This document shows, in pieces, positions 2,196 to 59,507 of a DNA stretch of 64,000 bases. The notes under the pieces are model-generated. The model was not told the DNA's origin, made no database searches, and saw only the letters and a list, made by a program, of their open reading frames with translations. Each line of letters starts with the position of its first letter. Positions within the stretch are counted from its first letter, which is position 1. The stretch lies in the NCBI GenBank assembly GCA_008933995.1, contig WARS01000126.1, positions 565,765-629,764 on the forward strand, in the 5' to 3' direction. The DNA is from Datnioides undecimradiatus. Taxonomy: Eukaryota; Chordata; Actinopteri; Lobotiformes; Datnioididae. The position numbers and the translations under genes are program-made.

Positions 2196-5100
2196 ATGGT
2201 CATTAACGCCGCTGGTTTTATAAACCAGCTTGGGTTCATGCGCGATGTATCCCTCAAGTAAAGGAATGGATGCGGTGCACAGGTACAGTTACACTTACCT
2301 GATACATCATAGACCAAAATTAAGTTTAGCAATAAAGAAATCCGATAATTGACAGACTTGACCATCCACAGTCCCCTTTATATTTGAGTTTATGGAGTAT
2401 TTCTCTAATGGTTCAGATTCCGTTAGTTTATATTCTGTGGCTCTAACCATGAGTCAGCACCATGACTAAGTCTATTAAACATAGTTATTATTCAACTAAT
2501 CAGTGGTATTATCATTGATCATTATAAAACAGTATTAATTTGGTTATGAGTATAATACCAACAGTTGCCAAAAATGCTTCCCATTGTAATGGATACGTTT
2601 AAAGGAATAATTCACCATCATTGATTTTGACATCAAGTATAATGCCAATATAAGCGATATTGTGATTGTTAAAAGTGAAATATTTAATAAATTATTCTTA
2701 TCTAACGTTTCTCTTAAATGGTGGAATGAGATAAAATACCTCAGCCATCAGGTTCACCATTTTTCAGATGGCAAAGCTAGAATCTGACAGTGTTCCAGGC
2801 TAATGATAGTAAATTCAGTATGTGCTGTTTCTGTGTTTCAGTATTTTGTGTTCACACAGAAAAAACATGCAGGGACTTAAAGGGCATGCACATGTGTTTT
2901 CAGTGACTCTGGCTCAATACACCTGTTGACAGGCAGAAATGGGTGGAGCTACGCTGGCAATTACAACTTGCTGTGTACTTCCTGGGAACTCTAAGGTGTA
3001 CATCACATTTCATTGATGACTCATAAGAGAGAGTCAAAATTATTAACACTGAAATGTCCAATCCAGTATATCAAAACCGTATTTGCATTGCACATTGTGT
3101 CACTGATCATACCATGGAAATAAGGTGTATATAAATCATTCTTATAGCTTTACTAATTCAGTGAACTGAAATGTAGAGAATGTTGCAATATTCAGCTGTA
3201 GCCGATAGTAATTGTCACAGTTTAGCACACCTGCTGATACCTCTTAATGCACTTCATGTCCATGATTCTTGCAGTTTTCCAGATCCAGATGGTTCAAAGT
3301 CCTTATTTTAAGTCACTTTGGATACAAGCGCCTGCTAAATAAATGTCATGTTTGCCTGTTGTTTTCACACTGTGGAATGTTACGTTGTATGCTGTGAAAC
3401 AGGCCTGTAGTTTTAAACATCTCATTTCCCAGAAGTTTGAACTATTCATTTAAGAACTATACTCTCACACTGTGTGAACTATGTGAATTGTAAAAACAGC
3501 TTTACATTTCAACCTTCCTGTTCTCAACTAACATGTTCCTGTGCTGTATTGTTGGTTTTCTGCAGTGGAACTGGTGTCTTCTACCAGGCAATGCCTGCTG
3601 TTGGAGCCGATGGAAAGAACATCATGAAACTGATTCCTGTGCAAATGATCGATGGACAGTTTTTCCAGAGAACAAGCAGACCCAAAACGGATTTTACTCC
3701 ACAAAGAGCCCTAACCGTAAATATTCCCTCAGCACCTGTTCAAGTGGTTAAAAAGGCATCTTTGAGTCCTTCTGCCACCCAGCAAGCTGTCAGGAAGCCT
3801 GTTTCACTCGCGAATACGTTGCACAATCAAGTAGGTTTGGATCGTTGTAATTCACTAAACAAGTGTCCGCCACAGGAACAGAAGTTAAAAGCGACAAACT
3901 GTGAGAGATTAGCAAAACTTCCAAGCCAGCTCCCGGTGACAGTGAAATCTCCAGCACTCCCTAGAGGACAGTACCTACAGATACCACATAATGCACAAGT
4001 CCGAACAGTCCAAGCATCTGAACTACCTGCAGGAATCAAAAAACAGATTTTTACTTCATCCGCCAGCTCTTCTCCAGGTTCAAGCTTACCCAGTGTAATC
4101 TACGTGTCACCTATCACGACGGTGAATCAAGATGTCACTCCACCACGAGATCCTTCACTTCACTCGCTCAAGCTTTCCAAGACGTCAAATAGACCTGCAT
4201 CTGGGCCAATGCAGAAAGCTTCGACACCACATTTAAAACTCATTCCAAAGGTTTCACAGAGGCCCAACAGCCCCATAAAGTGGGTGATTGAGGAAGAAGA
4301 CAGCTCAAGGCTGCCAACTGTTGATCCTCTGAATTCTCCTTCAGTTACCTCGGAGATTCTTTCAGTTGTGGCGGAGAGAGAAAATGCCTTCAAGCGTCAT
4401 GACACCAACACAAAACCGGTTTCTCAGCTGAGTCCGGGCAAAAGTGATCAAGGACAGGAAAACGCCTTGGTCATGTGCAACGGGAAGGTGTTTTTTGTTG
4501 CCAAAAAATGCAGCCTGCCGCGTAAAATGGGAAAAGGCAACTCACCAAACACGGCAACAAAAAGTGAAGAAGTGGAAAATACCACGGTGCCTCCATCTAA
4601 GCAGCCACGTGAGTCTGCTGCACCTGAGATGAAGCAGGACCTCAGAATTATCAGTCTTGATGAGTCAGATGAAGTGATTGACCTTTGTGATGATGACACA
4701 GAGGATGACTCATCCCAGCAAGCGGCATCAGTAAACTTGTCAGCAGTCACTCAACTGGATGAAGACAACGTCATCTTTGTGTCGTATATTCCACCCAAGC
4801 CAGAGCCTCAGTCCGCACAAGACGTGAGGGTAAAAACACAAATGGCACCCGAGAGGGAAACAGACCAGATGGTCACCAGCAGCTCAAACACTGCGACGGA
4901 ACCAAAGAGCCTGGATGGTGCAGCTGACCAGAGCACTTTAGTCAGCACAGTCAGAAATGTCACACGTGATTGTGGTTCAACAGTGATGAGCATGCACGGC
5001 AGTAAAGACTCAAATATCAACGGTCAGCAGAGCACCTCCACCCACCAGCTGGAGAGCATGGAAGTGCATGTAGAAACAGGGAAACCAGTGGATGCCTGCA

Positions 5101-6539
5101 CCTCCGACAGCAGCACTGGAATATTCACGCAAACAGGAAAAGAAACAAACAGAACAGAGGTGAGGGCACTACTCTTGTTTGATCTATATAATATATTGTA
5201 TACGTGTTTTTGATAGAAGCATGGAAAATAATTCTGATGCATTTAACTGCACGGTTAATGTAGAGCAGAGTTTGTTTCCAGTGCATGTCAACATGCAAGA
5301 GCTTTGAGTCTGTACAGTGCATGTGCAGTTTTCATTTCAGTGTCATAAACCAAATGTTTGGTCACATTAAACATCCTTCTAACAAAGATTTGATCATGAG
5401 AAGCGGCCTGTTGCAGCCCTTCTCCTTCTGCTCAGCCTATTTACAGTATAGACCTTGTCAGTAAACTATGAAAGCATTGTAGAATATGACATCAGCCTCA
5501 GCTACACATTGCTAATGAAAGACTCCTACTTTATAAATATCTCATTAACAAAGATTGTGGTTAACATAACCTGCCGTCAGTATCTTAACATTGTTGATAT
5601 GTGTATGTTAGCATGTTAGCACCACTGTTTCAGAGTCAATAGCATGGCTTAATAACTGGCAGACTTGTTGACATGTTGTTTTGATGACAGAGTGTTACTT
5701 CTTTCTGCTTGCAGAGCTCCGTGAGTGCTGCGACGAGGCTGACGTCTTCTCTGTTACCAAAATCCTGTGCAGCCGCCGACCATCTGCTGAGGCAGATGTT
5801 TCAGATAAAAGCTGATGTCAGAATTTGCCTGCGGAGGATCGATGAAGCCTCACCCGCGTCAGTCAGCCATCCTGAGACTGACCGTTGTGGTCTCGTCGAT
5901 GTCAGACAAGCGAAGGAACTAGCTGAGCAGGAGGGGTCAACAGACTCTGCCTCTCCAACACTTTGTTCACATCTCAAACTGAACACAAAACCTCTTCCTG
6001 CCTTGAAATGCATCTCAGGTCATAGTTCATGCATGGGAACGTCATATGATGTGGAAAGTGAGCCAGTGATTGGCTACGTGGAACCAATAGATGAGGATTT
6101 CCTCAGCACAGATGAAAATGACATCCCCAGGTCACAGGACGTAGACTTCCAGAGACAGACTCCGACTTGTGTGGATCTGAATTCAAGCACACGGAGGATG
6201 GGAAGAATGAGGAAGCGCACAATCTGTCCGTGTTGCATCCCTGGTTCTCAAGATCCTGCGGCAAAGTACACAGCAAAGTCATGGGCACTAGAGAAGTTCG
6301 CATGGGCGACAGAGCAGGCAAGTAAAAAAGGTGGAAAAACAAAGGCTGTGAGAAAAAATGGAATAACGGCGAAGAACAAGCAGAACGGTTCCACTCCTGA
6401 GTTTCCTGCCAGCGACAGTTCATCCACAACATCCATGGACTCTGATGAACTGAAACGACACGAACAGATTCACAGACTCAGGGAGCTTCTGAGAGAGAAG
6501 GAGGCAGCTTTAGAAGTGATGAGAAACAGCATGAGCTGA
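2196..6539 (+). CDS. lrif1: lrif1: ligand-dependent nuclear receptor-interacting factor 1
   Basis: Proposed coding exons are 2196-2257, 3566-5159 and 5715-6539, with phases joining cleanly to give about 826 residues (human LRIF1: about 769). In the family this nuclear protein binds the retinoic acid receptor, HP1 and SMCHD1 and supports silent chromatin. Landmarks are FYQAMPAVGADGKN near the N-terminus, LPVTVKSPALPRGQYLQIP, LPSVIYVSPITTV, ENALVMCNGKVFFVAKK, the exon-3 segment FQIKADVRICLRRI and the C-terminal HRLRELLREKEAALEVM. All match LRIF1 in order. The last one is the coiled-coil segment and contains an LxxLL at about 807-811. VIDLCDDD at 391-398 looks like a SUMO-interacting motif (inference). 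Exon 1 is the weakest part: ATG 2196 is the first in-frame ATG after a stop, ATG 2238 is an alternative, and the donor is CTCAA|GTAAAG. Confidence 0.88.
3306..3354 (+). repeat. SINE-type 3' tail relic in lrif1 intron 1
   Basis: The stretch AAGTCACTTTGGATACAAGC followed by GCCTGCTAAATAAATGT closely resembles the shared 3' tail (AAGTCGCTTTGGATAAAAGC...) of several fish SINE families. No tRNA-like head was recognised upstream, so this is a tail fragment. Confidence 0.65.
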
Positions 6540-8264
6540 GATAAAAAATATTCTAACATACTGCAAGGTTTGTTATAAGTTAACAGATTTATTTTAGTAT
6601 ATAACAGTTATTACTGTTCACTTTTGTTGTCACTTAACACAAACTAACACAGGTATCACATGAGCTTCAGTACAGTGTAAAGGATTTATGGCGTTAACAT
6701 GCACGAGCTTCTAGTTTCACAGCGGTGTGGTACGGAGGTGTGTGCAGACAGACTGGGCAGCGGCCACGTGTCCAGAGCTGGCAGTCACAGGACTTTAAAG
6801 TTAGCATTAATGAAAAATAAGATTTTTCTCTTGAATCAGATGTTCACTATCAATTTATCAGGAAGTTTACATTGTAAGGACAGTGATTACCAGCTCATAC
6901 AACTTCACGTAACAGGCCCTTGATGAAACAGCCTGTTGTTGTTGTTCCTGCCACAGGCGTCAAACCTTATGTTACGTTCACGCTTTTGGCATTGTTTTAT
7001 TTTTATTTATTTCCTGTTTTTATGTTTCTCTCTGAGAGGAAGCTGTCATGTAGATGTCGACTTCTCAGCAGATTATTTATTGTACCTGTAACATTGTTTG
7101 CAAAACATTCTGATGTCGTTATCGCATCATCTTTAACCTCGCACCACCTTTAGGTGTTTATTTAGTGTACAGATGCAGAGTGCGCAGCTGAATATGATCA
7201 TATTACCACCATGCCACACTGTGAGTATCTCCAAATAATTGGCCCAGTAACGATTATACACCCGTTCAACGTGGTGCTGCACATCACACACACCGCCATG
7301 AACAGTTCACTGCTATGAAACTCCAAGGTCACCGCCTTACATGTTGAAGGTTAAATCGATTGAAGAACCTTTAAGAAGTAACATTGAATCAGTAGCTCTA
7401 ACATGCTACAGATGTGTCCCCGGACTCTTTTCAGAATGTTAAGTTTAAATAGGCGAACTATCCCTCCCGGCTCATTGAATCCACCTCCTGGCTTTTTCAA
7501 AGACTGCGAGATGCACTTTAAAGCTCAGAAAGTAAAACTTATGATTTATGAGCAGGCTATGCCACATGTATTGATCTATAGGTCCAAGAAAATTAAATGA
7601 GAAGTGGGAAATGAGCAATGCAATCAACTGTTTTAAGTTTCACCTCAGCTAGAGCTTCAAAGAGGAGGTACTTCATCTCTTTGAGTGAGGGTTTGTCGAG
7701 GCATTGAGGTGAGTACAGTAAAGCTAATACTGTATACTAACACTGTAAGTCTGCCTGATGAGCAATGAATGCTTCGGTTAACAGCTAAGTGTGGGTTTGT
7801 ACACACTCAAAACATTTTCTGTTTTATATTTGTGAAAAATGCTGTGTTATGAGGAGTTATTGAATGTCATGCAGGTCGTGTTTATGAAATACTAATGCAA
7901 TATTTATATTTTATTGGGGCACACAAATAAATTCGCCAGTTAAAATGATCAACGTGAGCTTTTGTTGTTTTTAAGATAGGTTCATCAGTCAGTCATCAAG
8001 CATCAATCATATGTAGCCTGAATACAGAAATATGAGCTGCCTGTGGGCTGAAAGTTCAGACATGAAGAGATGCCCCAGGGCTGCTACGTCAGACTTCTGC
8101 TATGTGTGTCAGGCCTTCAGAATAAAAGTCGATACTTACAAAGTCAAAGTCGAGGTGATCTAATTACAGGGCAGATGATGCAATTTGGTATGTAATTGCC
8201 ACACCCACTAAATGATCACGAAGATTAGTAGGTGTTTCTAGGAATTATTATCTTCAATGTACAA
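6540..8264. other. lrif1 3' UTR and intergenic spacer
   Basis: No coding region is recognised. Short ORFs here are AT-rich and match nothing known to me. An AATAAA at 7926-7931 is a possible distal poly(A) signal for lrif1, but no proximal signal was convincing. Confidence 0.4.
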
Positions 8265-9827
8265 GCCAGTCTGAGCATTGTCTCAATCAACCGGAGAGTA
8301 ATTAGATCCAAACCCTCAACCTGTCTTTTGGACCCCATCCCAACTCATCTTCTAAAAGATGTTTTCCCCCTGATTGGCTCTTTTATATTAGACCAGATCA
8401 ATCTGTCATTACTAACAGGTTATGTTCCACAGGCTTTTAAGGTTGCTGTCATCAAACCTCTACTCAAAAAGCCTTCTCTCGACCCTGGTGTTTTAGCGCA
8501 CTATAGACCAATATCCAACCTCCCCTTTATTTCTAAAATCCTTGAAAAGACCGTAGCTGATCAGTTATGTGATCACCTGCAGAGGAGCAGTTTATTTGAA
8601 GCATTTCAGTCAGGATTTAGAATAAACCACAGCACAGAAACAGCATTGGTTAAGGTTAGCAACGACCTCCTAATAGCTTCTGACAATGGCCTCGTCTCCT
8701 TACTTGTCCTGCTAGACCTCAGTGCTGCATTTGACACCATCGATCACGGTATCCTACTACAAAGACTAGAACATGTCATTGGCATTAAAGGAACAGCACT
8801 AAGCTGGTTTAAATCTTATCTATCTGACAGATTCCAGTTTGTCCACGTTAATAATGACTCGTCCGTGCACACAATGGTTAATCATGGAGTTCCACAGGGT
8901 TCTGTGCTTGGACCATTATTGTTCTCCCTTTACATGCTCCCCTTAGGCAATATTATTAGGAAGCACAACATAAATTTCCACTGCTACGCGGACGATACAC
9001 AGCTATATTTATCTATGAAACCAGAAGAAACAGATCAATTAGTCAGACTTCAGACATGTCTGACAGACATTAAGGCATGGATGACTTATAATTTTCTGCT
9101 CCTAAATACAGACAAAACTGAGGTGATTTTGTTTGGGCCTAAACACCTCAGAGACAGGTTATCTGACCTCGCAGTCGCTTTGGATGGTGTTACCCTGGCC
9201 TCCAGTTCTACTGTGAGGAACCTGGGAGTCATATTTGACCAGGATATGTCCTGTCAGTCCCATATTAGGCAGGTCACTAGGACTGCCTTCTTTCACTTGC
9301 GCAACATAGCTAAGATTAGGAGTATCCTGTCCAAAAATGATGCCGAAAAGCTGGTCCACGCATTTGTTACCTCAAGGCTGGACTATTGTAATTCCTTGTT
9401 GTCAGGTTGTCCGACTAGCTCACTGCGAGGCCTCCAGCTCATCCAAAACGCTGCTGCGAGGGTTCTGGTGGGAATTAGCAAGAGAGATCATATTTCTCCG
9501 GTCTTAGCTTCTCTTCATTGGCTCCCTGTAAAGTCCAGAATAGATTTTAAAGTCCTTCTTCTTACCTACAAGGCCCTTAATGGCCAAGCTCCATTGTACC
9601 TCAATGAGATGCTAAGTCCCTATCAACCCAACAGATCACTTCGCTCCCAGAGTGCAGGTTTGCTTGTGGTTCCCAGAATCTCCAAAAGTAGAATGGGAGG
9701 CCGAGCCTTTAGCTATCAGGCTCCTCTCTTGTGGAACCAGCTGCCAGTCTGGGTCCGAGAGGCAGACACCCTCTCTACTTTTAAAGTAAAACTTAAAACC
9801 TTCTTGTTCGACAAAGCCTACAGCTAG
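8265..9827 (+). CDS. LINE reverse transcriptase (open, 5'-truncated ORF2)
   Basis: The frame is open from 8232 to the TAG at 9825-9827; LINE-like sequence begins around [17 protein letters not shown]. Reverse transcriptase motifs appear in order: [61 protein letters not shown] and YADDTQLYL (YADD near 8985). A C-terminal thumb/tail region ends in [20 protein letters not shown]. In the family this protein reverse-transcribes the LINE RNA at a nicked target. No frameshift or internal stop is seen across more than 500 codons, which suggests a fairly recent insertion. Without an endonuclease or a natural start codon it is not expected to be autonomous. Confidence 0.88.
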
Positions 9828-10378
9828 CTCTAGTTACCATCTGAACTACACCATCCATGCCATCCCCCAGTTATGCTGCTATAGGCCGAGGCTGCTGGGG
9901 GACGTCCCATGATCATCTCCACACTCCTCCTCTTCCCTCTCTCTCCTTAAACTCCATTAGCTCTGTGTCCTCTCTCCCCTAGTGCTGTGCTTGTTTCTCT
10001 CTGGTCTCTCTCTCTCTGTACCTCTCTACAGATACCTGTGGCTCCAGAGCTGAACATCTGACCTGTGGCTCCACCGACCTGCCCCGTGTCCTCTGCTGCC
10101 TATTGCTGTCATTTGCTGTCATTATTCTATATTGTCCCCCCCCCAACCGGTCAAGACAGATGGCCGTCCACCTAGAGCCAGGATCTGTCCAAGGTTTCTG
10201 CCTGTTAAAAGGAAGTTTTTCCTTGCCACTGTTGCCAAGTGCTTGCTCATGGTGGAACTGTTGGGTGTAACTAACAGTAATGAGTGTGGTCTAGACCTGC
10301 TCTGTTTGTAAAGTGCCCTGAGATGACTTTTTGTTGTGAATTGGCGCTATATAAATAAAATTGAATTGAATTGAATTA
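8265..10378 (+). mobile_element. L2-clade (CR1 superfamily) LINE, 5'-truncated
   Basis: A reverse transcriptase frame is followed by about 550 bases of 3' UTR ending in GGCGCTATATAAATAAAATT and repeated TTGAA units (to about 10376). That is the classic 3' end of teleost L2-type LINEs. No endonuclease domain or first ORF lies upstream, so the copy is 5'-truncated. The left edge is set where RT similarity begins and is approximate. No target-site duplication was found by eye. It sits in the same orientation between lrif1 and its paralog. Confidence 0.88.
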
Positions 10379-10979
10379 ATTCCTCTGCGATTTATAACAA
10401 TGGTCATGAACAAAGTCAGTTTCCATCTCCTCTCCTGTGCTTATCATGACATTGATAATTTGTTTGTTTGTTGATGAAAAATTAGTCCATGCCCTTAAAA
10501 TCAGCCATTTACTGTGCAGTAGTTACATTTTAAAGACAAAGGGACAGATGGGTAGTTTGATGTATAACATGTACTTTTAAATCACATGTCTAACAGTGAT
10601 TTCCTTGCACACAGACAGATTCTAGTTTAAAGACAATCACAAGCCTTCCTGTCGGACACGGTGGTTCAAGAACATTTGTAGTTGAAGAACAAGGAATGAA
10701 GTAGACAATAGATATGATGATATAATTTCTACAGATATAAACTGATACTGATTGATACTTTTACTGTAAATAGAGTCTATAGTCACTGTTGTAGGCTGCT
10801 ATAAAGCCAAATAAGAGGTCCGGATGCATTTCGAGATGCTACTACTCAAGTGATTTCAGGGGGCTGAAGTGTAGCACATACGTTTGTTTAACCTGTTTTG
10901 TCCCTTTAAGAGTTTTAGGCGACGTTTTTATTATGAAAGGTACGTCCCGGAAGTGCAGCTGTTTTCTGATTAAATGAAA

Positions 10980-11030
10980 CTGCATCAGAGCAGCCGGGAC
11001 CTCAGCAGCTAGATAACGTGTTTCGTTCAG
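10980..11030 (+). promoter_or_regulatory. Candidate 5' UTR exon and promoter of the lrif1-like gene
   Basis: CpG-containing sequence from about 10910 to 11350 surrounds a strong donor (TTTCGTTCAG|GTGAGAG, cut after 11030). The first coding exon downstream begins with an acceptor (12278/12279) and only 15 bases before its ATG. A non-coding first exon ending at 11030 would therefore complete the gene. The transcription start is not defined. Confidence 0.45.
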
Positions 11031-12163
11031 GTGAGAGCGACGAAACGGGATTTATTTGACATTATTCACACCACCGTCGACTATAATATGTGGTAGCTAT
11101 GAAACAGAATCCGCATTTATCCGTTTCGATGGTAATTTTAGTTTTCCACGTCCCTCCAATCCTACCGAGGCGCACTGTCTTGTATTACGGACTAAATACT
11201 TAAATACGTTTCATGGCGTTTGTTAAGAAGAAACTAATGGACGTTAAAAACAACGAGGTCTGTCCTCACCTTCACCTCGCGCTTAATTATAAAGGTAGAA
11301 ACAGTAACGCGGCAGGAGACGAATTGCCTTAGTTACACGGGGTGTTCTTCCGCCGGAGGACTTATCGAATGTGTTTCAGAATGTAGGACCTCATAGGGTA
11401 CATGCTTACTGGTTAATTGCAGTGCAGTCACACCTGTTACTCCCCACAAGGATTAGCTGACTCTGGCAGGTGTGTCATTTAGCCGAGCAAGCGTTCTGAT
11501 AAACAATGCGAATCAGCCTCACTGATTTGTTCTCATTAAACTGATCCAAAACTAGGCACCCGCAAGTTATTGTTAGGAAAAACAATGTACTATAAATGAT
11601 ATCAAAAGAGGTTAAAGCAGTCCTCATTAAGACAAATGTAATTGATTTATTATTGATCTAATGCACAACCATGGTGGCCGTAGACTCCACAGGGTATGAA
11701 ATATTGGATCTTGGAGCTAAATTTCAAAATAAAAGTTGTGTTAGTCTGTGATTAATATCCTCACAGGTTAATTCCACATCTTATTTCCACCATCAAAAGT
11801 CACCCGGTGCTCCACGGCCATGACCCTGCTCATCATCCAGACTGTTAGCTGCTGCGGATTGCTGAACCAAGTCAATGCCTGTTACCTCCACGAGGTGACA
11901 ACGCACGATGAGGGCCGACAGCTGAATCAGAGTATTTTTCATATTTTCAGTTTGCCTGAAAAACTGAAAGCCATTCGGTTAATCATGTTAAGAAACAATT
12001 GGCAGATCTTCACGTTAGAAATCAGATGATATTGTGTAGATTCGAGAAATGAAACCAAAACTACCATCTAAAGAATCATCTTAGATTTTTACCTAATAAT
12101 TGCATTGATACTATCCTTAACTACCACTTTATGTGAAAGCATGAAATTATGGTCAGTGCCCAT

Positions 12164-12188
12164 CCCCATCCATCCATCCATCCATCCC
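12164..12188. repeat. (CCAT)n microsatellite
   Basis: Short run of CCAT units in the intron before the first coding exon of the lrif1-like gene. Confidence 0.8.
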
Positions 12189-12278
12189 CCAAAATCAGTG
12201 TGAAGCTGGTTGATCGTTGATGAAACGACCTGTTATGGAGTCTGCGCTTTAACTGAACCACTGTGAATGTGTTTACAG

Positions 12279-14721
12279 GCAAATACACGGAGCATGGATC
12301 TTGAAAGTATGGAAATCTACATCCCGGCGGACACTGAAGTGAAAAGGATCCCGCTGAGGAGTCTACCCAGCTCAATACTCAGACGAATGAGCCTCCCTCC
12401 GGCTGACACAGATGGGTCCAGGAAGCCTGCAGAATCTTCGGAGGGCATATGGATTTGTCCTGCGGTCCTGCGGAAGAAAGGCCAGAAGCCAGCATCCCAC
12501 ACAGGAAGCGGCGTGATAGAAAGCATGTCCTCACTGATGAACAGGGATTTCAGGGCTGCTGTCGGTCCCTTCCGAATGTCCTTTGTCTCCTCCAGCCACA
12601 CAGCTTACAAGGTGCTGAAGGACACGATGCCTGGGAAAAAGGTCTCCACACACACATCTCGCATGTCCCTGTTATCTCTGGACGCGACACCGCGAACGTA
12701 CCATGAAGCTGTGTTCATCTACCAGGGCCGCATCTACCTGTCCATCAGGAAGCCCCGCCGCAACCAGAGCAAACACGAGACAAACAAACCACAGCCGGCC
12801 ACCCAGTCTTCTGTTCTCTCTACATCAGATGTGTCGTCTAAAAGCCAAAGGAAGGTAACGTGACACTCAAGCCACTGCAACAAACCTATGAGTGGGAGAA
12901 CATGGCAGGTCATTTAACAGGCGTGGTTTCAGCCTTTGAAGTGAAATCGGAGTCTACAGCCATGCCAGCACACACAGTGGTGATTTGTCAGTATGCTAAA
13001 ATGTCCACAATGCTAACATATGAATGTTTAACAGGCAATGTCTGCTTAGTTCACTGTCTTAGTAAGCATGTAACGTTTTATTACAGCTGATGATGTCACT
13101 GCATGAAACATCACATGGTCATCAGTGTTATAACTCATTCTGATGAGGACATGAATGTTTAACAGCAGCATCTAAATATAAAGCACATTGCTGACAGTGT
13201 TCGGTCTAAATCAGAGGTTTGACTCTTCGTCTCTTAGGAAGATTTTGTAGGCAGTTATATTTACTCGTTTACATGTGACTTGTTTACCCTCCTGCAGCGC
13301 CAGTCCCCCCAGGCCTCTCTTGAACCTGCAGACAAAGAGGTGCAAAGGAAGAGGGTGCACATCACTTTGCCCCAGATCTCACAAAAACAGTCAAAGGAGC
13401 TTCTCACAAAAACAGACAGCGCAGATCAGGTGAGCGTAACAACAATGGCAACTTCATAAACATAGCACATGCACGGAAAACAAATAATTTGAAAACCACC
13501 TGCACACAACACCAGCAACTCCCGGAAACACTCTCGCACACACCGAGCAGGTTATTGCTGCTCCCAACGCAGACTCCAGAGCTAAAGCTGGCCTAGATCT
13601 CCTCTACCTTCCAAAATACACCAGTGACTGTGTGACCCATTAATAGTTCACTGTGTTACACTGTTATTAAACACAGCACTGACTGTTGCGAGTCAGTATA
13701 CCGAGTTGGATTAGAAAGACACGATGCATCAGGAGAAAACCCTGAATGTCTAAAAATATAGTAACACAGATTTCCATTCACACGCTGAGATATGTCATTC
13801 TGTCAGACATCACTGTTTCTATAGCTGTGCAGCTAGGGTGTCTATAGCAAGCAAGGGTTGCAGGTGAGCATCTGGAGCTTCAGAGTTCCTCAGAAAGATG
13901 TCTGACATGGTTTGAACCACTCATAACTACTTTTTACTCGTCAAACACACATAGACAAGGGTCAAATGACTTGCATCTCAAAGGCAAAAGACACTTTACT
14001 CGAAATAACTCTTAAAGACCCAGCAGGAATGGAGCTCTGTCACAGTACAGCAGTTCTAAGCATCTGTTGTGGGCTTGATCATATGTCTTTACATTTAATC
14101 CAAGCAAAGGAACACGAGCTCCATGTGACAGAAGTTCTTTACATCCCTCAGGAGCTGCTAAATGACACCAGCCCCAAGAAGAAACACACCACATGTAAAG
14201 CAACACACAGTGAAAACATGATGAAAAAGGATGTGACACACAAGGGAAGGGACGTGTCCTCAACCAAGACTGCACGCTCTGTCCCTCAGTCCTCTGACAG
14301 TGTGCACAGCGTGCATGGCCAGTGCCATAAGGATGCCGGAGGAGAGCAGGCTGCAGAGGAAGGACCCAGCCAGGAGCCAGCTTGGTTTCAGCATCAAGGG
14401 GAGCAGCAGCAGGTGGAGCCCAGCAATGACAGTGAGACACAGTACCTGGATGCAGAAGAACCTGAGAGCACCAATCAAAGCAGTGACATGGACAGTAATA
14501 TAAAAAGTGACAGCGGGGAACCTGACATCATGGTGGGCATTGTAGAGCAAAGTAGCAACCAGAGCTGGACCAGGAGAGAGTCACACAGCGCAGCTGCTGC
14601 TTCCACATCCCAAGAGCAGGAGTTTGACTTCACGGAGCTGGCACAGGAGGAGAGAATCGCACGGATGAAGGCCATACTCAGACAGAAAGAAGGGGCTCTC
14701 AAAAACCTGCACTTTTCATGA
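12279..14721 (+). CDS. lrif1-like tandem paralog
   Basis: Exons are 12279-12854 (ATG at 12294), 13298-13429 and 14152-14721, all phase 0, giving about 420 residues. Four places match the neighbouring lrif1 and LRIF1 generally, in the same order: IPADTEVKRIPLRSLPSSI (versus IPHNAQVRTVQASELPAGI); SSHTAYKVLKDTM (versus a VTSEILSVVAER segment); HEAVFIYQGRIYLSIRKP (versus ENALVMCNGKVFFVAKK); and C-terminal RIARMKAILRQKEGALKNL (versus RIHRL-type coiled coil). The LRIF1 segment FQIKADVRICLRRI has no counterpart. The acceptor at 14151/14152 (pyrimidine-rich, ACATCCCTCAG) is preferred over the longer ORF starting at 13966. A nuclear chromatin role is inferred from homology only. Calling it a paralog rather than a distant relative is my inference from collinearity and adjacency. 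Confidence 0.78.
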
Positions 14722-19380: not shown

Positions 19381-22300
19381 ATGCACTCCTCATGCTGCCC
19401 TTCAGCCAGACCACAGACACTGAAGGTAAGACCAAAAGTTGCTGATGCACTGTTGTGCAGCAGGCTGATACCTCTCATCATAGAGTTCAGATTATTGGGT
19501 GTTGTTGATTTTTTTATTAGTGCTTCAATAGTTCCCTGTAAATCCCTGGAATCCCTGAAAGGACCTCATTTGTTTCTGTAGATTCACTGGAAATATGGAG
19601 AACATATTGGATTGGTGCACTTATATTCATTTATTTTTGTACACAACATGTGTCCTCAGTAGAGAGATGCATATTCAGCATATGCTTAAACACTCACCGA
19701 CTGTCTTTATTTTGCTCATAAGCATAAATAATTGTTATTTTTTAACGAATTATTACGAAATGTTGGAGCTATAAATGAGAGCATCACTGCAGCTCTTCGG
19801 AAACTGAGCAGTTTAAGTTTCGGGCTGTTTTCCAGACAAAATAAGCATTCTGAGGACACAACTTGCTGAAGGACATCACGTCTTCAGATGATTTATAACC
19901 AAAATGAATCCTGGAGCCACCAGGTTTCAGATATCAGCCTCTTGCACATTTGCAGATTGTCTTCATTGAGTCTATTGAGAATCCCTTTTTTGCTTTTAAA
20001 AAGCGATGACACCAGTTTATATCATTATTCATAATCTAATGCACAATGTTACAGCGGTCTAATTGCCCATAAAACAGGGTAACCTGCGCTGGTTTATTAA
20101 AAAAATGTTGTTTGGAATTTAGAGAATAAGTGTGCAACCCATCACGATATTCTGAAATTTTCACTGGACTTAATAATGCTGGAATTATACGATGCAAATA
20201 TCCCACTATGAAATTAATCCCTTTTTTTTTTTTTAATTTCAATTTTAAAACGTGAGTGAAAGTTACGTCTCATACACGGGGGTTCAAAATTCCCTGAAAA
20301 ATCCCTGAAACAACAGAGTCTATGAAGCACTCTCAGTGGCAGTGAGGTCCCACTGAGATGCCTGCACACTAAACAAAAGCCTTTTAATGTAACTCTGGCC
20401 AGTTTGCAGTCAGTTGACGTTAATAATAATAGTGATGGCAGGTTGACAGAGGCCGAAGGAGTCGGTTGTGCGTTACAGTGAAGTTCTCCTGACAGGTGAG
20501 GGAAGTCACAGTGATTATAATTCAGTCTTTTGGACTTTTTAGACCTTTATTACAAAGTCATGATGAGGTAAAGACACAGAAAGCTTCTGCAGAATCAAAG
20601 CCTTGTCTTGGGCTATTTAAGGTGTGTATTAACAGTTTTCCCCCTTACCTTCAGGTGTTGTGTGTTCGGATGTGTATGTTCTACTCCGCCACCTGTCTGG
20701 CAGGTTGGCCGCTCCCCTCAGAGGCGGCCAGACTGCGCTGTGGTACGGATCTCCTCAGCGACCTCATATTTGTGTGCGGAGATCGCGGAATCTATTTAGG
20801 TAAGCGTGTTTTCTTGCTATCCACTGTGATAACTGATGATGAGATGTGGAACTGGAAACTGTGGCTGTCACAGAGATTGAAAGGCTGGGATTCATCGGCT
20901 AGAGAGCGGGAGCAAGGACAAAAGTTGTATTGCTACAAAAAAAAGTTCCGCTGAAATAATAAAACATACATTTAGTGACAATCTTCACGTCAGTCTATTT
21001 TATTTAATGCTGTCAGTTTCTTCTGCGGTGGTTTCCAGTTTCAGTTGTCACTGCAGAGAGGAGGAGGGTTTGAGGAGAGGGGGAAACAGGAGTGTGATTT
21101 CCATATAATCTGCAACCCAAGGAGAGAACGTCACTGTTCCCAGATCCAAAATGCTTCTGATGTGACTGCACACTAACAGCAAAGGCTTTGTGAGAAAACA
21201 CCCTTAACATCCTTATGGTCTGAGTGTTGCGGGTGAACAGGTCGAAGCCATTGCTGCAGTGTCTGGCCATGCCAAAGGCTTCAGAGTGGATGGATGAAGG
21301 AACACTGACATCCTCTCTTTCAAGTGCATCATATGGAAATCATGCTCCCTTTGTCCCTTTCCCACAAGTAACTCAGACTAGTTGGGTAGCTGGGGTGTTA
21401 GCTGGTAGCTGCAGAGGTGCTAGTTCACCCTCTGGGCACTAGCGAGGCACCCTTGACCAAAGCAGTGAACCCCAAACTGCTCAGACGCAGTTGGGCAATT
21501 TTGTGTGCGTGTGTAAAACACCAATCAAGTGAAAACTATTCCCCAGCCAGCAGATTAATAACATAATTCACACAATAATAGTGGCAGAGAATTTGAGGAG
21601 AATCTTGGAAAAACAGACTAAACCCTAACAACAACTCTGAAGGTTGTCATCAGAAACACATTAAAACACAACAAATCTCAAAATCAAATAATTGTCAATG
21701 TTTCACTTTTCTGTAGTACTCTTTTCTGAGCCAGTACAACTTTTTTCCAATACAAGTGTTTCCAGTGTTTTCTTCTTCAGTTCTGTTTTCATTGTTCTGT
21801 ATTATGGACACATTTGGATACAATCTAATACTGAAACAGGCCCCTTGCACAGTATCAAGCTCAATTAAGGGAACATCTTAAAAGTGCATGCAGCATGGCA
21901 AAGAAAGGCTCCCAGATACTAACTTTACCAGCTTTATTTTATCTGGACCTCCTCTTGCTGCATTCACAACCTTGTTTTTGTTAAATTATGCAATATAATT
22001 CAATAGGTTGTGTGTCTATGTTTTTTGAACACTCTGTTCTACAGATGTCAGGCTCTGCTGTTAGCAGGAAATTATTGAAAAGTGGCCAGGCTGAGGCCCG
22101 TCTGTGTGCAGTGTGCATGTTCTCCCTCTGCCTGCATGCAGCTTATTCCAGGAGTTTAGGCTAAATGATGGCTTGATAGTGCTTGTAGGTGTGAATGTGA
22201 GCATGTCAGTCCTGTGAGCGACCGGTGATCTGTCCAGGGTGTGTAGCTAATTAATGGAACTGATCTGAGTGCAGATTGATTGTATTTTCACTCGTGTAGA

Positions 22301-23938
22301 TTTCATTACATTTAAAAAGCTGATAGGACAAAATGCTATCAATGTTATTCTACCCTGTGTGTTAACACTAGCAGAGGTGCATAATACAGATATGGTCATG
22401 GTCATCTTGTCCACATGAAAACACCGCAGCAACTCTGAGAGAGCTATCAGCTCCACAACAACACATCGCTTTCTATTCATTTATTTACACGAGGACTAGC
22501 CACAACACTTTGCTTCTGCACTGTAGCCATCAACAGCAAAAGATACAAAGTCAGCATTTAATGCAAAGTCATATTTATGATTGACAAAATGTAATTCTGT
22601 TGTTTTATGCAACAGTGGCCCATCATTTAATATTAAGATGACTGTAATTTTAAATTTTAATTTTGAAAAAAGTAATTTTTAAAATACATTCTCTCGTAAC
22701 TGTGCACAGAGAATTACCCACAAGCCCTTTCACTTGATTACCTTTCCCCTGCTCTGACCAAGGCCACCTGCTCCATCTGCTATCAGTGAGTGGTGGCAAT
22801 ACACCAAAATGGCAGCGTACTCACCAGGACACGGTGCCTCAGTGTGTGATAGCTTTATTGTTAAAACAGTCGTTATCTGAGACCAGCTCAGCTTTCGCAC
22901 TAAAAACAGAGAAAGGTGCAGACTGGGAGAAACAGCAGGAACTGTCTGATTGACACAGAGTGGGTACCTGGGTACAGGCAAAAAAACACTGTCAACAAAT
23001 CCTGCTCTTATAGGACAACAAATAGGTTACAAATATCATGTCATGTACACATTGACACGAAACCATGCTCCCCAGAGGAGCACATTTCAATGACCTCCAT
23101 TCAAACTGACATTCCTCTGTCTGCAGGTAAAGGCACGTGGTCTGGGTACGGCGCTCGGCCTAGAGGGAAGGGGATCGTGGACCAGTGCTGCCGGCCAGCC
23201 GGCTGTGAGCTTCAGCATCTGGAGAAGTACTGCGCTAAACCCAAGAGCCAGCAGCACACCACGGCTTACCCAGCCACCACCACAGCAGCTCATACAACTG
23301 CACAGCTTAACATGGTATGACATCCACAGCTTGGGTGTGAAGGTTCCTTTTTGTCCTTTGGAACAGTCGCAGGAGAGAGTATTAACTCAACAATACTGAG
23401 AGCTAAAGCAAACTCTTGAGTTCAGGACACTTTGTCAAACTCTACTGCTGTCTGCTGTCAAATACAGTGCACACTTCACTTTGCAAAAGGTGAACATCAG
23501 TCCAATTAAATATGTGCTGCTAATTTGAGCTAATATGCTGCTGATTTGAATCCAAACATGTGAGAGAAGTGACTTTAGTACCTGAAGCAAAACCGAAAGT
23601 ACACCATAACAACGTTGATATCTGTGATAAAGCCTAGCTGATCAGTGCAAGGTTACCTGCCTCAGACGAGGTGCATGTCCTTGACTCAGCTCTTCATTCT
23701 TATCGTTGTCTTGCAGGCACAGCAGCTCCACACAGTATATCAGAGGAGACTTCTGGAGCACCTAGGGGCCCCCAACAGTCCGAAGAGGGAAGCTTACAGA
23801 AAGAAAACACAGCCTTCAGCTCGTCGGAAAGGCAAAGTGCCATCGTCACGCAGGAGGATTAACTCACAGAGCACCACTCACAGGCCTCCTGTACCCTCTA
23901 GGAGTCCAGTTCGAAGAACCAGGAGATCTGTGTCATGA
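19381..23938 (+). CDS. igf3: igf3: teleost gonadal insulin-like growth factor 3
   Basis: Coding exons 19381-19425, 20655-20799, 23127-23314 and 23717-23938 join in phase to give 199 residues. The N-terminus has a hydrophobic signal-like segment (about 15-33) after an unusual cysteine-containing start. The B domain has Cys44 and Cys56 in RLRCGTDLLSDLIFVCGDRG. A short basic C domain (YGARPRGK) follows. The A domain, GIVDQCCRPAGCELQHLEKY, has Cys84, 85, 90 and 99. The long D/E tail is Thr/Ala-rich, then strongly basic (RRKGKVPSSRRR, RSPVRRTRRS). Intron positions (one inside the B/C region after a GDRG segment) are as in IGF genes. IGF3 is a secreted ligand that acts through IGF receptors in fish gonads to stimulate germ-cell development. 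It is preferred over igf1/igf2 because of the divergent B domain and basic tail. The gap Cys85-Cys90 is one residue longer than the usual CC-x3-C. Confidence 0.87.
21395..21505 (+). repeat. Decayed SINE-like repeat in igf3 intron 2
   Basis: The segment with GGCACCCTTGACCAAAGCAG then TGAACCCCAAACTGCTCAGA matches the body found in many fish tRNA-derived SINEs (GGTGCCCTTGAGCAAGGCAC...CGAACCCC...CTGCTC). Ends are not defined. Confidence 0.5.
22085..22245 (+). repeat. Decayed dispersed fish repeat in igf3 intron 2
   Basis: GGTGTGAATGTGAGCATG and GGTGATCTGTCCAGGGTGTG resemble a very common fish interspersed repeat (GTGTGAATGTGAGTGTG ... GGCGACCTGTCCAGGGTGTA). The family name is not known to me with certainty. 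Confidence 0.45.
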
Positions 23939-30647: not shown

Positions 30648-31647
30648 TCAGTCCTCTATAGTGGGACTGCAACAGCAACAAAAGGAAGCTGTGATATGAC
30701 TGAAGAGTCTGCGAATCCTCTTCAGAAAGGTATTAGGGCGACCAGAGGAGGCTGAGGCTGTTTGTTTAGCTCCATCAGAAGATGAGGCAGCTGGATCTTC
30801 ATCATGGATGACAGAAGGTAATACTTCACGAGAAGACCAGGCAGCCAAATTTTCATCACAGGAGACAGAATATAGTCTTTCAGAAACAGACCAGGTAGCT
30901 GAATGTTCATCATAGTAAAAAGAAGGTAGTCCTTCATCAGAAGGCCAGGCAGCAGGACTGTTATAGTAAAATGAAATAAGCCTTTCATCAGAAGTGAAGG
31001 CAATTGAGTCTTCATCATAGGAGAAAGAAGGTAGTTGTTCCCCAGAAGACCAGGCAGCTGGATCTTTGTCAATATAAACACAAGGTAATTCTTCATCAGA
31101 AGACCAGGCAGCAGGACGGTTATAGTAAAAATTAATAAGTCTTTCATCAGAGGTGAAGGCAACTGAATCCTCTTCATAGGAGAAAGAAGGTAGTCGTTCC
31201 CCAGAAGACCAAGTATCTGGGTCTTCATCATAGGAGACTAAAGGTAGTGCTTCAACAGAAGACCAAGTAGCAGGACTGTTGTCATAGTAAAAAGAAGGTA
31301 GTCCTTCATCAGAAGGCCAGCTGGCAGGGCTGTTATAGTAAAATGAAATAAGCCTTTCATCAGAAATGAAGGCAACTGAATCTTCATTATAGGAGAAAGA
31401 AGGTAGTTGTTCTCCAGAAAACCAGGCAGCTGGATCTTTGTCAATGTAAACACATGGTAATTCTTCATCAGAAGACCAGGCAGCTGGATCTTTGTCATAG
31501 GAGACTGAAAGTAGTGCTTCATCAGAAGACCAGGCCGCTGAGTCTTTATAACATTTAGCTGGAGGAACATCACTGGAACCAGAAGATACTGGGCTTGCTG
31601 AGTCCTCCACTGTACAGATGTGCATCATGGCTTGGGAGGTACTCAAA
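30648..31647 (-). CDS. Acidic tandem-repeat ORF with basic, tetra-cysteine C-terminal tail
   Basis: A 332-codon minus-strand frame starts at a possible splice acceptor (CTGATCCAG|TTTGAG, exon from 31647) and ends at TGA 30648-30650. After about 35 Ser-rich residues come 14-15 imperfect repeats of 17-18 residues with consensus EDPAAWSSDEELPSFSYD (51 or 54 bases each). Two larger blocks of about four units recur almost unchanged, so the array grew by segmental duplication. The tail contains FLKRIRRLFSHI then ASFCCCCSPTIED: a basic amphipathic stretch plus four cysteines, which suggests membrane association and palmitoylation (inference). It lies about 100 bases past the last kinase exon on the same strand and is probably, but not certainly, its C-terminal exon. 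Other frames are also open for long stretches, as expected of repeats whose length is a multiple of three. ATTAAA on the minus strand at 30631-30636 is a possible poly(A) signal. Confidence 0.6.
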
Positions 31648-31754
31648 CTGGATCAGATATGAAAAATTAATTAGTGAATATGTGAATGAATGAATCAATA
31701 AAGCTATCAATCCACCCAGACTAATGTGAACTCTACTACCGGGCACAAGGTCAC

Positions 31755-33175
31755 TTAGTATGCGCTGCTATCAGGGTGCTTGGTCAGGTGGGACATTGTG
31801 ATGAATGAGTGCTGCAGAACTCGATGGGGAGAACTTCTCTGATCCCCATGAAGATGCAGCAGCTGTTTCATGAGGTCCACAAAAGCCCGCCTGTCCTCAT
31901 ATTCTGTTGCTTTCCTGTCTGGATAGACCTAGATTTGGAAACAGATTTAGGTTAGTTTATCCAGCCCCTTCCTCTTAGAGATAATAAAGATGAATAGCTG
32001 GTACTGATTCAGTCTTTACTCATAGAACAGAGGGTACTTACATTAACTAGGTCATCCAGAGAGCTGGGCAGGTCAATGAAGCTATGCCGATCTTCTGGGT
32101 TTACGTTATTGGCAGCTGCATATTCTTCTGGTGTCTGAATAAAAAAAAAATATGTGAAAAAAAGTTCAAATGAAATGATTTTAATCAGCTCAAACAAAGA
32201 ACAACATGGTTACTCACCATCATCCTCCATGTCAGACCATCAGCAGTCTCCTTCTCACTGAAAAAGCGCCGAGTATATATCCCAGCACTGAGCAGGTGGT
32301 CCTCTGGCTGACCCAAAACATCCACCATGCATTTCATCTGCAGGCAGAAATCACAGAATCACATTGGTTGACAGTCTGCATACATTCTCCACTTGGTTGT
32401 TGACATCTATCGAAGTAGCTGACTTACCATTTGATAGTCACAGTCAACAGGAAAGAGGTTGTCTGTGAGGTAGAGGAAGGCCAGGACGCAGCCGACTCCC
32501 CACGCGTCGATAGCCTCATTGAAGGGCAGGCCGAGGGATACTTCTGGAGCTCTGAGGAGGCAAGACAGAATCAAAGGTGAGAAAGTTTGTTGGCAGGTTT
32601 TAAGGACCAAGAAAACAAGGTGCATGTGTCAAAGAATGACACAAGCTTTGCAGGAAGAACAGATGAACGGTGAAGGATGAAAATACCTGTATCCAATTGC
32701 CTGAAGCAGCATCCCAGGCTCAACTTTGGAGGCTGGAATGGCTTCACCGTCTATTAATTTAACCTTGAGGGGCTGGTCCTCCTTGTCGACTAACATAATA
32801 TTGTCTGGTTTGATATCAGTGTGCAGGATACCCAGATTCTTTAGGGCGTCCAAGGCCACCAACAGCTGCATGGACGAAATAGGAAAGGACGAGATTGGGA
32901 TTTAGCTTCTGTGCAGAATTAAGAATAAAGGTTTTTCTACATTGATGAACACTACATTTGAGTAACAATACATTATTGGTTCCGCGTTTCATTGAAAGAC
33001 CAGTTGTATCCTTGCTGATCATGGGATTACATTTGTGTCCCTAGTGTGAGACATTTAGCATCAACCACACTTCCACTTACCTGCTGCACCAGAGGGGTCC
33101 GAGTTTGGCCACGATGACATTTTTCAATGATGTCAGCTATTCTCTGTTTAGCGTTTCCAAGGTTGAGAACGAACC
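31755..33175 (-). CDS. HIPK-like protein kinase, C-lobe exons (partial, possible pseudokinase or pseudogene)
   Basis: Minus-strand exons, in transcription order: about 33175-33081, 32865-32687, 32551-32428, 32337-32218, 32134-32042 and 31928-31755; all junction phases agree. The translation reads like the C-lobe of homeodomain-interacting-protein-kinase-like proteins, a family expanded in fish: TPLVQQLLVALDALKNLG, catalytic loop HTDIKPDN, YRAPEVSLGLPFNEAIDAWG, MVDVLGQPEDHLLSAG, DRRAFVDLMKQLLHLHGDQR, HSFITMSHL. The activation-segment motif reads KLIDGEA where the family has IDFG, so the DFG phenylalanine is missing through an in-frame three-base loss. No N-lobe (glycine loop, VAIK lysine) was found upstream as far as about 36.3 kb. 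The last exon ends ...SSAY then TAA, directly followed by GTGACC. The most 5' exon is uncertain because its acceptor is weak. Confidence 0.65.
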
Positions 33176-55640: not shown

Positions 55641-55674
<34 letters not shown>

Positions 55675-55842
55675 GATATTTGATGAGGTGGAGAAGCGGC
55701 GGCAGATCTCCATGGCCATGATCTACCCATTCATGCAGAAGCTGAGAGAGGCTCCATTCCCAGCTCCGGGAAACACAGTGGAGATTAAGAGCTTCATTCC
55801 TGAGTCGGGCACAGAGGTCAGACGAACCCCCCCCACCCCTTA

Positions 55843-55875
<33 letters not shown>

Positions 55876-58800: not shown

Positions 58801-59439
58801 TGTGAAAGTCCCAGCGGAGCGCCTCTCACTCTGCCTTTCATTCCCTCTGTAACACAGCTGCTGGTGGTCGACCTGTCTGAGGATAAAAAGGAAACTTTCA
58901 TCGTTTCAGTCAGTACTGATTCATCAACAATACAGCAGCTATAATCATTTGGTAGTGATTTGAAAATTAAAAAGGCATTAGTGTTCACACAAATTGTTGA
59001 ATCTTTGTCCAGATCGGAGATGAAGGCTCTATTCTTCCCCCGAAGCTGCGAACTGAAATCTTAGAGGCCCTCAGTAACAGACCCAAAGAGCCCTGTGAGT
59101 AAACTGCAGCTAATGAAACATAAGTGTGTCAGGAGTATTGTTTTTCTATAATAACAAATGGTAACAAAATGTCTTTTCTTTCAGCGGTGGAGGAGCTGAA
59201 CCGGGTGGTTTCTGAGGCCTTCCTGCTTTTCTTTGTGAAAACAGTCGGCCATTATGGCTCATACGTGAAGCACGGCAGTGCCGGAGCGCAGGGGGCATTT
59301 GAGAAGAGACGTTTCTACAAGGCCATCGAGTCCAAGACCACTCGACACTTTGTCAAGAAGTTCATCGAGACGCAGATGTTCGACCTGTTCATCCAGGAGG
59401 TGGAGCAGCAGCAGCCTGGACCGCAGCAAGGTGAGGACC

Positions 59440-59507
<68 letters not shown>

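What the first reader, a model, noticed from the sequence alone, without database searches (positions are those of the whole stretch)
2196..14721. A divergent lrif1 tandem duplicate sits directly downstream of lrif1
The gene at 12279-14721 matches lrif1 (2196-6539) at four places in the same order: the IP..xEV..IP/xLP segment, an SS...LK segment, the EAVFIYQGRIYL / NALVMCNGKVFF segment, and the C-terminal RI.R(M/L)...LRxKE.AL coiled coil. Same strand and adjacency argue for tandem duplication. I do not know of a described LRIF1 paralog. LRIF1 is a chromatin-silencing partner of SMCHD1 and HP1, so a second, shortened copy could be a modified or dominant form.
Basis: partly seen in the sequence, partly recalled or inferred. 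Interest (0 to 1): 0.72.

Follow-up and report, generated by a model that had tools for sequence, protein, structure and literature searches.

The report
Ancient shortened lrif1 paralog in fishes
Just downstream of the fish chromatin-silencing gene lrif1 lies a half-length relative of it, likely an old tandem duplicate, that keeps lrif1's core and C-terminal coil but lacks five of its conserved segments, so it would be a second, still untested partner in the Smchd1 gene-silencing system.

Summary
The gene at 12294-14721 (three coding exons, 420 aa) is a paralog of lrif1 (2266-6539, 811 aa). Pairwise BLASTP is weak (E 0.001). Family profiles are decisive: hhalign 53.5 against at most 27.6 in 200 column shuffles, with core and coil matching separately, in order. 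AlphaFold gives both cores nearly the same order of strands and helices.

It is an uncharacterised fish gene family (database name si:dkeyp-110g5.4). In 32 of 33 species listed with contigs for both genes, both lie on a contig of the same length. A block tree puts the split before the salmonid/spiny-rayed split, weakly (91%).

Gene 2 lacks lrif1's N-terminal strands and its VIDLC, VIFxSYIPP, F.IT and CPCC segments (0 of 60 proteins). The window protein itself has no Pfam hit. Most likely it is a reduced, alternative or competing adaptor of Smchd1; binding and expression were not tested. No paper in the library holds its name.

The parts
2266..6539 (+). lrif1: coding exons 2266-2282 (ATG 2266 or 2245), 3566-5159, 5715-6539; 811 aa
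   Evidence: Splice model; Pfam LRIF1 PF15741 E 7.3e-44, 150.9 bits
3963..4049 (+). lrif1 core block 1 (IPHNAQV..ELP..IKK), strands and helix
   Evidence: Matched to gene 2 12306-12389 by hhalign; AF2 strands and helix
4092..4127 (+). lrif1 core block 2 (VIYVSP strand pair)
   Evidence: mean identity to the gene 2 block only 0.06
4272..4385 (+). lrif1 core block 3 (PIKWVIEE strand, then S..TSEIL helix)
   Evidence: mean identity 0.16 and 0.12
4458..4505 (+). lrif1 core block 4 (ENALVMCNGKVFF hairpin)
4674..4799 (+). lrif1 VIDLC (SUMO-interaction-like) and VIFVSYIPP segments, absent from gene 2
   Evidence: Motif counts lrif1 40/43 and 35/43, gene 2 0/60
6447..6536 (+). lrif1 C-terminal coil, the Smchd1-binding part in published work
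   Evidence: Matched to the gene 2 C terminus; function from passages of PMC10307901 and PMC9226161
8232..9827 (+). LINE-type reverse-transcriptase ORF between the two genes, not part of either
   Evidence: RVT_1 E 8.9e-37
10995..11030 (+). Probable 5' non-coding exon of gene 2; end set by donor CAG|GTGAGA, start uncertain
   Evidence: Inferred from splice signals and from the acceptor at 12278/12279
12294..12854 (+). Gene 2 (si:dkeyp-110g5.4-like) coding exon A, 187 codons, core domain
   Evidence: homologs
12306..12389 (+). Gene 2 block 1 (EIYIPADTEVKRIPLRSLPSSILRR)
   Evidence: hhalign
12441..12476 (+). Gene 2 block 2 (GIWICPAV)
   Evidence: hhalign; AF2 strands 50-61
12573..12629 (+). Gene 2 block 3 (RMSFVSS strand plus AYKVLKDT helix)
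   Evidence: hhalign; AF2
12705..12752 (+). Gene 2 block 4 (EAVFIYQGRIYLSI hairpin)
   Evidence: hhalign; AF2 strands 139-151
13298..13429 (+). Gene 2 coding exon B, 44 codons; nearly or wholly absent from 21 of 47 aligned proteins; no detectable lrif1 counterpart
14152..14721 (+). Gene 2 last coding exon with stop
14629..14718 (+). Gene 2 C-terminal coil (ELAQEERIARMKAILRQKEGALKNL)
   Evidence: hhalign of the last 60 columns 42.9, 44 columns at 36% identity, to lrif1's last residues

Best explanation
The gene at 12294-14721 is a half-length paralog of lrif1 (database name si:dkeyp-110g5.4), likely from an old tandem duplication, and its product is predicted to bind Smchd1 through the kept C-terminal coil while lacking five of Lrif1's other conserved segments, so it would work as a second Smchd1 adaptor that modulates or competes with Lrif1. 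Shown: homology, collinear core and coil, absence of five lrif1 segments, linkage to lrif1 in other fishes, intact frame. Inferred: tandem origin before the spiny-rayed fish radiation. Predicted and untested: nuclear location, Smchd1 binding, competition with Lrif1, and weaker HP1 or SUMO bridging.
For: Profile-profile match of 60 gene-2 proteins to 43 lrif1 proteins: probability 81.8, E 1.1e-5. Of 200 column shuffles 0 reached the real score; reversed 14.1. The N-terminal 165 columns (49.5; 100 shuffles max 29.0) and the C-terminal 60 columns (42.9; 100 shuffles max 19.3; 100 seven-residue-block shuffles max 36.2) each match on their own. The coil matches lrif1's last exon and not the rest (40.4 vs 9.9). 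AF2 order of elements, gene 2: E E H E E H E H E E; lrif1 from residue 135 of its exon 2: E E H E E E E H E E, differing at one element. P0183 meets the PF15741 cut-off (29.0 vs 27 bits) and P0225 nearly does (25.1). Contig of the same length as lrif1's in 32 of 33 species (counted by hand). Five entries are single models running from lrif1 into gene 2: P0074, P0077, P0082, P0154 and P0023. Over 29 of those 33 species gene-2 and lrif1 mean identity are 0.509 and 0.532 (406 pairs, r 0.86), which suggests comparable constraint. Published: LRIF1's C-terminal coil binds SMCHD1 (passages in PMC9226161, PMC10307901, PMC4628070; the last leaves open whether the hinge or its flanking coils are met).
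Against: The window protein itself has no Pfam hit at E up to 10. LRIF1 is hit by only 7 of 60 family proteins at E up to 1 and 6 of 47 at E up to 10, where one member hit an unrelated family slightly better (Cryptochrome_C 0.0017 vs LRIF1 0.003); 1 of 74 distinct family proteins scanned passes the cut-off, and it was picked because the database already listed the domain. Two of the paired blocks are only 6% and 12% identical on average. Coils are low in complexity, and one short coil does not show Smchd1 binding. Both AF2 models are poor overall (mean pLDDT 59 and 49; pTM 0.52 and 0.30), and one helix of gene 2 stands where lrif1 has a strand. The duplication date rests on 98 hand-paired columns and 91% SH-aLRT, below the 95% mark. 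Gene 2 is less conserved than lrif1 in 289 of 406 species pairs. No expression or binding data exist here. No zebrafish or salmonid gene 2 protein was recovered, so its age is inferred from a name and a weak tree.
Confidence: 0.5

Rival explanations
1. Gene 2 is an lrif1 paralog that has left the Smchd1 pathway: the coil dimerises with itself or binds another partner, for example in the gonad.
For: Five conserved lrif1 segments are gone, the paired blocks are only about 22-28% identical to lrif1, and it has further copies in Channa, Caranx, Scortum and probably Trachinotus, which suggests a changing role.
Against: The coil is the best-kept lrif1 part (36% over 44 columns; mean identity 0.35, the highest of six blocks), and the gene diverges about as fast as lrif1.
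Confidence: 0.3
2. Gene 2 is not a separate gene but alternative 3' exons of lrif1, read through into one long transcript.
For: Five entries in other fishes are single fused models; same strand.
Against: Gene 2 has its own core and its own coil, duplicating what lrif1 already has. Only 4 of the 120 listed lrif1 hits are fused. In one fish a gene 2 protein is instead named after the next gene, igf3 (P0178), so such fusions look like annotation errors. A LINE and about 4.5-5.7 kb lie between the genes.
Confidence: 0.05
3. Gene 2 is a decaying, non-functional copy of lrif1.
For: Exon B is nearly or wholly missing in 21 of 47 family proteins and several segments are lost.
Against: Intact frame and splice sites here. 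110 homologous proteins, some of them fragments. Seven invariant and 19 nearly invariant columns across 60 rows. Mean identity between species only about 2 points below lrif1.
Confidence: 0.04
4. The likeness to lrif1 is chance or convergence in two disordered, coil-containing proteins that happen to be neighbours.
For: Pairwise identity is very low; BLASTP E 0.001 and 0.042; 0 Pfam hits for the window protein.
Against: 0 of 200 shuffles; both ends match separately and in order; nearly the same predicted secondary-structure order; one member passes the Pfam cut-off.
Confidence: 0.02

Closest known systems
[quoted passage not shown]
   Same: Collinear beta-rich core (four blocks) and C-terminal coil; phase-0 intron before the coil exon; neighbouring gene on the same strand
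   Different: About half the length; no YQAxPA N-terminal strands, no VIDLC, VIFxSYIPP, F.IT or CPCC segments (0 of 60)
LRIF1 short isoform (LRIF1S, made by skipping exon 2 in humans; PMC10307901, passages)
   Same: A shorter LRIF1 product that would keep the coil region (exon make-up from the paper; that it includes the coil is inferred)
   Different: LRIF1S loses exon 2, which by analogy with the fish gene holds the core; gene 2 keeps the core and is a separate gene, not a splice form
si:dkeyp-110g5.4, 'uncharacterized protein' of fishes
   Same: The same gene family by sequence (up to 65% identity over the full length)
   Different: No function found in print; the link to LRIF1 appears in the databases only as stray names (P0017, P0023) and two precomputed domain hits (P0183, P0225)

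Membership tests
LRIF1 (PF15741) | Pfam LRIF1 profile reached by the window protein itself | tested here: not met
   No hit at E up to 10. One relative, P0183, reaches 29.0 bits against a cut-off of 27; 7 of 60 family proteins hit at E up to 1, none above the cut-off (best member P0225, 25.1 bits)
LRIF1 (PF15741) | LRIF1 core blocks in order (IP..A.V / VYVSP / KWVIEE-helix / ALVM.NGKV) | tested here: met
   hhalign; AF2 element order, one element differing
LRIF1 (PF15741) | C-terminal coil at the very end of the protein | tested here: met
   Score 42.9 / 40.4 against shuffles max 19.3 and 36.2
LRIF1 (PF15741) | N-terminal YQAxPAxGxxG strands | tested here: not met
   lrif1 41/43, gene 2 0/60
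LRIF1 (PF15741) | VIDLC, VIFxSYIPP, F.IT, CPCC segments | tested here: not met
   lrif1 40, 35, 35, 39 of 43; gene 2 0 of 60 for each
LRIF1 (PF15741) | HP1-binding PxVxL motif | tested here: inconclusive
   No conserved strict PxVxL in either fish family. lrif1 has a degenerate VxICL (40/43); gene 2 exon B has a (P/V/L/I)x(V/I)x(L/I/V) in 15 of 26 rows, but exon B shows no homology to lrif1's last exon (E 0.22)
LRIF1 (PF15741) | Binding to the SMCHD1 hinge through the coil | not testable with these tools
Fish si:dkeyp-110g5.4 family | Full-length similarity and linkage to lrif1 | tested here: met
   Up to 65% over 100% of the length; contig of the same length in 32 of 33 species

The most novel reading that the evidence does not exclude
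Spiny-rayed fishes carry a two-adaptor Smchd1 system: full-length Lrif1 that links Smchd1 to HP1 and H3K9me3 chromatin, and a half-length paralog encoded next door that occupies the Smchd1 hinge without that link, acting as a built-in antagonist that sets the strength of epigenetic silencing at hox genes and in the germ line. Some published zebrafish 'lrif1' results could then concern, or be masked by, the paralog.
Probability: 0.2. Interest if true: 0.75.

Novelty: new variant of a known kind. Interest (0 to 1): 0.5.

Why it matters
LRIF1 is an established partner of SMCHD1, whose mutation causes FSHD2 and whose loss in zebrafish mothers gives hox defects in offspring (PMC9226161, PMC10307901; passages read). 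None of the passages I read mentions an LRIF1 paralog. A conserved, reduced paralog beside lrif1 in fishes gives a natural domain-deletion experiment: it shows which parts of LRIF1 can be lost together, and it names a gene to knock out alone and with lrif1. It also warns that fish lrif1 knockouts may be buffered, and that some gene models mix the two genes.

Tried and rejected
Exon B as the counterpart of lrif1's F.IT..V.ICL (possible HP1) segment: not supported, hhalign E 0.22 and at the wrong place.

Solved relatives: none for the lrif1 profile at E up to 1; the gene 2 profile gave only colicin E1 at E 5.9; the two 41-residue coils gave only chance rows, E 1 or worse.

Whole-genome search for further copies: the same request to the genome search was made nine times and answered 'busy' each time; copies elsewhere in this genome are unknown. 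Inside the window tblastn finds one gene 2 and one lrif1. A bacterial-type promoter scan before gene 2 found no more than shuffles and is not relevant to a fish.

Zebrafish link: the published zebrafish lrif1 guide (PMC9226161, passage) reads MQSLFI in one reverse frame. I could not tell whether it lies in lrif1 or in si:dkeyp-110g5.4, since no zebrafish protein is among the rows. Four regexes (IP, SLP, YxG and coil) are too loose to count and are not used.
Full report
Gene models. The window holds two same-strand genes. Gene 2 has coding exons 12294-12854, 13298-13429 and 14152-14721 and gives 420 aa. All introns are GT-AG. Gene 2's introns are phase 0, as is lrif1's last intron; lrif1's first is phase 2. 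lrif1 hits Pfam LRIF1 at E 7.3e-44; gene 2 hits nothing at E up to 10.

Is the likeness real? Sequence against sequence it is thin: BLASTP finds the last 28 residues (43% identity, E 0.001) and the VIYQGRIYL region (E 0.042). I collected relatives of each gene: 55 for gene 2, 180 for lrif1 of which 120 were listed, and 110 for gene 2 with a profile made mainly of its N-terminal region. Searches scored only the candidates sharing most words (7989 and 7997). I aligned 43 lrif1 proteins (A2) and 60 gene 2 proteins (A4), the window's own included. hhalign joins them at probability 81.8, E 1.1e-5, over 159 columns from the IP block to the VIY block (first version with 47 gene 2 rows: 78.0, E 1.8e-5). 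The control I trust most is column shuffling of the gene 2 profile: real score 53.5; 200 shuffles mean 17.0, SD 2.9, max 27.6; reversed 14.1. Cut in two, the N-terminal 165 columns score 49.5 (100 shuffles max 29.0) and the last 60 columns 42.9 (100 shuffles max 19.3; 100 shuffles of seven-residue blocks, which keep coil character, max 36.2). The coil goes to lrif1's last exon (40.4) and not to the rest (9.9). So two separate stretches match the right two places in the right order.

Two further tests agree, with limits. Among single family proteins scanned against Pfam, 7 of 60 hit LRIF1 at E up to 1 and no other family was hit by more than one; in the earlier set 6 of 47 hit LRIF1 at E up to 10 (best 0.003), two hit Piezo_TM25-28, and one hit Cryptochrome_C at 0.0017. 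None of these passes the LRIF1 cut-off. P0183, which I scanned because the database lists the domain for it (2 of 110 rows carry it), reaches 29.0 bits against a cut-off of 27; P0225 reaches 25.1. So 1 of 74 distinct proteins scanned passes. AlphaFold2 gives gene 2's exon A the order strand, strand, helix, strand, strand, helix, strand, helix, strand, strand (mean pLDDT 59, ten-residue blocks up to 88). lrif1's exon 2 shows, after four N-terminal strands that gene 2 lacks, strand, strand, helix, strand, strand, strand, strand, helix, strand, strand, spread over longer disordered linkers (mean pLDDT 49, shared blocks up to 88). The two orders differ at one element, a helix in gene 2 (73-85) where lrif1 has a strand (223-228). 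The shared elements are the blocks that hhalign paired. Neither model matches a solved structure convincingly.

How old and how linked? The exception, Lucifuga dentata, has them on scaffolds of 51,864 and 45,506 bases. Four of the 120 listed lrif1 hits are single models that run on into gene 2 (Toxotes, Lates calcarifer, Trachinotus, Solea), and P0023 of Lates japonicus is a fifth, which points to adjacency and one orientation there. The next gene downstream here looks like igf3 (insulin-family A domain 23.6 bits, cut-off 23), and a gene 2 protein of Amphiprion carries the name IGF3, as expected if the order lrif1, gene 2, igf3 is kept. All named owners of gene 2 are fishes and, to my own knowledge, spiny-rayed fishes; absence elsewhere was not tested. 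On six hand-paired blocks (98 columns; 43 of 103 rows given), gene 2 forms one side of the tree (100%) and spiny-rayed lrif1 excludes both salmonid lrif1 and gene 2 (SH-aLRT 91, below the tool's 95 mark). That favours a duplication before the salmonid split, weakly. Mean block identity of gene 2 to salmonid lrif1 (two proteins) is 0.276 and to spiny-rayed lrif1 0.222; single blocks range from 0.06 (VYVSP) and 0.12 (helix) to 0.35 (coil). Over 29 of the 33 species (those with fused, doubled or scattered models left out) the divergence of the two genes is correlated (r 0.86 over 406 species pairs, mean identity 0.509 for gene 2 and 0.532 for lrif1, gene 2 lower in 289). The correlation mostly reflects shared ancestry, but the similar rates argue against decay. 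Further copies exist in Channa (61% identical), Caranx (two units in one model), Scortum (96%) and probably Trachinotus (86%).

What was kept and lost. Five lrif1 segments are absent from 60 of 60 gene 2 proteins: YQAxPA strands (lrif1 41/43), VIDLC (40/43), VIFxSYIPP (35/43), F.IT (35/43) and CPCC (39/43). VIDLC followed by acids is of the kind that binds SUMO (my knowledge, not tested). No conserved strict PxVxL exists in either fish family; lrif1 keeps VxICL (40/43), and gene 2's exon B has a loose counterpart in 15 of the 26 rows that carry it, but exon B is not demonstrably homologous and is nearly or wholly missing in 21 of 47 rows.

Mechanism. In mammals the LRIF1 C-terminal coil binds SMCHD1 and a PxVxL motif binds HP1 (PMC10307901, passages; PMC4628070, passages). 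LRIF1 forms lacking the SMCHD1-binding part, or both binding parts, lose those interactions and fail to repress AAV vectors (PMC11257396, passages). In zebrafish, loss of lrif1 phenocopies loss of smchd1 with hox derepression (PMC9226161, passages and one section). A protein that keeps the coil and the core but not the rest is therefore most simply a second Smchd1 adaptor with changed or reduced bridging. Whether it competes, substitutes or has moved to another partner is open. I give homology 0.97, Smchd1 contact about 0.5, and net antagonism about 0.2.

Literature. No paper in the library holds 'dkeyp-110g5.4' or 'dkeyp-110g5'. The listings for LRIF1 with SMCHD1, with coiled-coil and hinge, with paralog, and with zebrafish and duplication, and for HBiX1 with HP1 (25 of 87, 7 of 7, 15 of 21, 10 of 12 and 15 of 21 papers listed) show no title or shown abstract start about an LRIF1 paralog; LRIF1 with igf3 gave none. 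I read passages of four papers only. Subscription papers and preprints are not held.

Noticed in passing
window 20493-23938 (+): An igf3-like gene lies downstream of gene 2: insulin-family B-domain-like exon (Pfam Insulin 14.1 bits, below cut-off), A-domain exon (23.6 bits, above the cut-off of 23), and an E-domain-like ORF without a Pfam hit.
   Followed up: partly
P0178 (Amphiprion ocellaris): A gene 2 protein is named 'insulin-like growth factor 3 isoform X1' in databases, and P0189 is named SETD1B: automatic names of this family are unreliable.
   Followed up: no
PMC9226161 methods: The published zebrafish lrif1 guide reads MQSLFI in one reverse frame; whether it targets lrif1 or the paralog could not be checked here.
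   Followed up: partly
P0026/P0029 (Channa argus), P0006 (Caranx melampygus), P0032/P0037 (Scortum barcoo), P0190/P0082 (Trachinotus anak): Gene 2 has further copies in several fishes: 61%, two units in one model, 96% and 86% identical.
   Followed up: partly
window 8232-9827 (+): LINE-type reverse-transcriptase ORF of 531 codons between lrif1 and gene 2 (RVT_1 E 8.9e-37).
   Followed up: partly
window 30648-32901 (-): Kinase-domain fragment beside a long ORF of degenerate SSDE..PS..Y repeats; looks like a fish HIPK-like kinase (name recalled; Pfam Pkinase 28.6 bits, below the cut-off of 31.7).
   Followed up: partly
window 55640-59513 (+): DENN and dDENN exons of a DENND2-like gene, a neighbour that human LRIF1 also has (gene name and human order recalled).
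   Followed up: partly
P0074, P0082 upstream of the gene 2 part: Two fused models share a similar stretch (QTDQL..C.QGN) just before gene 2's first coding exon; could be a real shared 5' exon or a model artefact.
   Followed up: no
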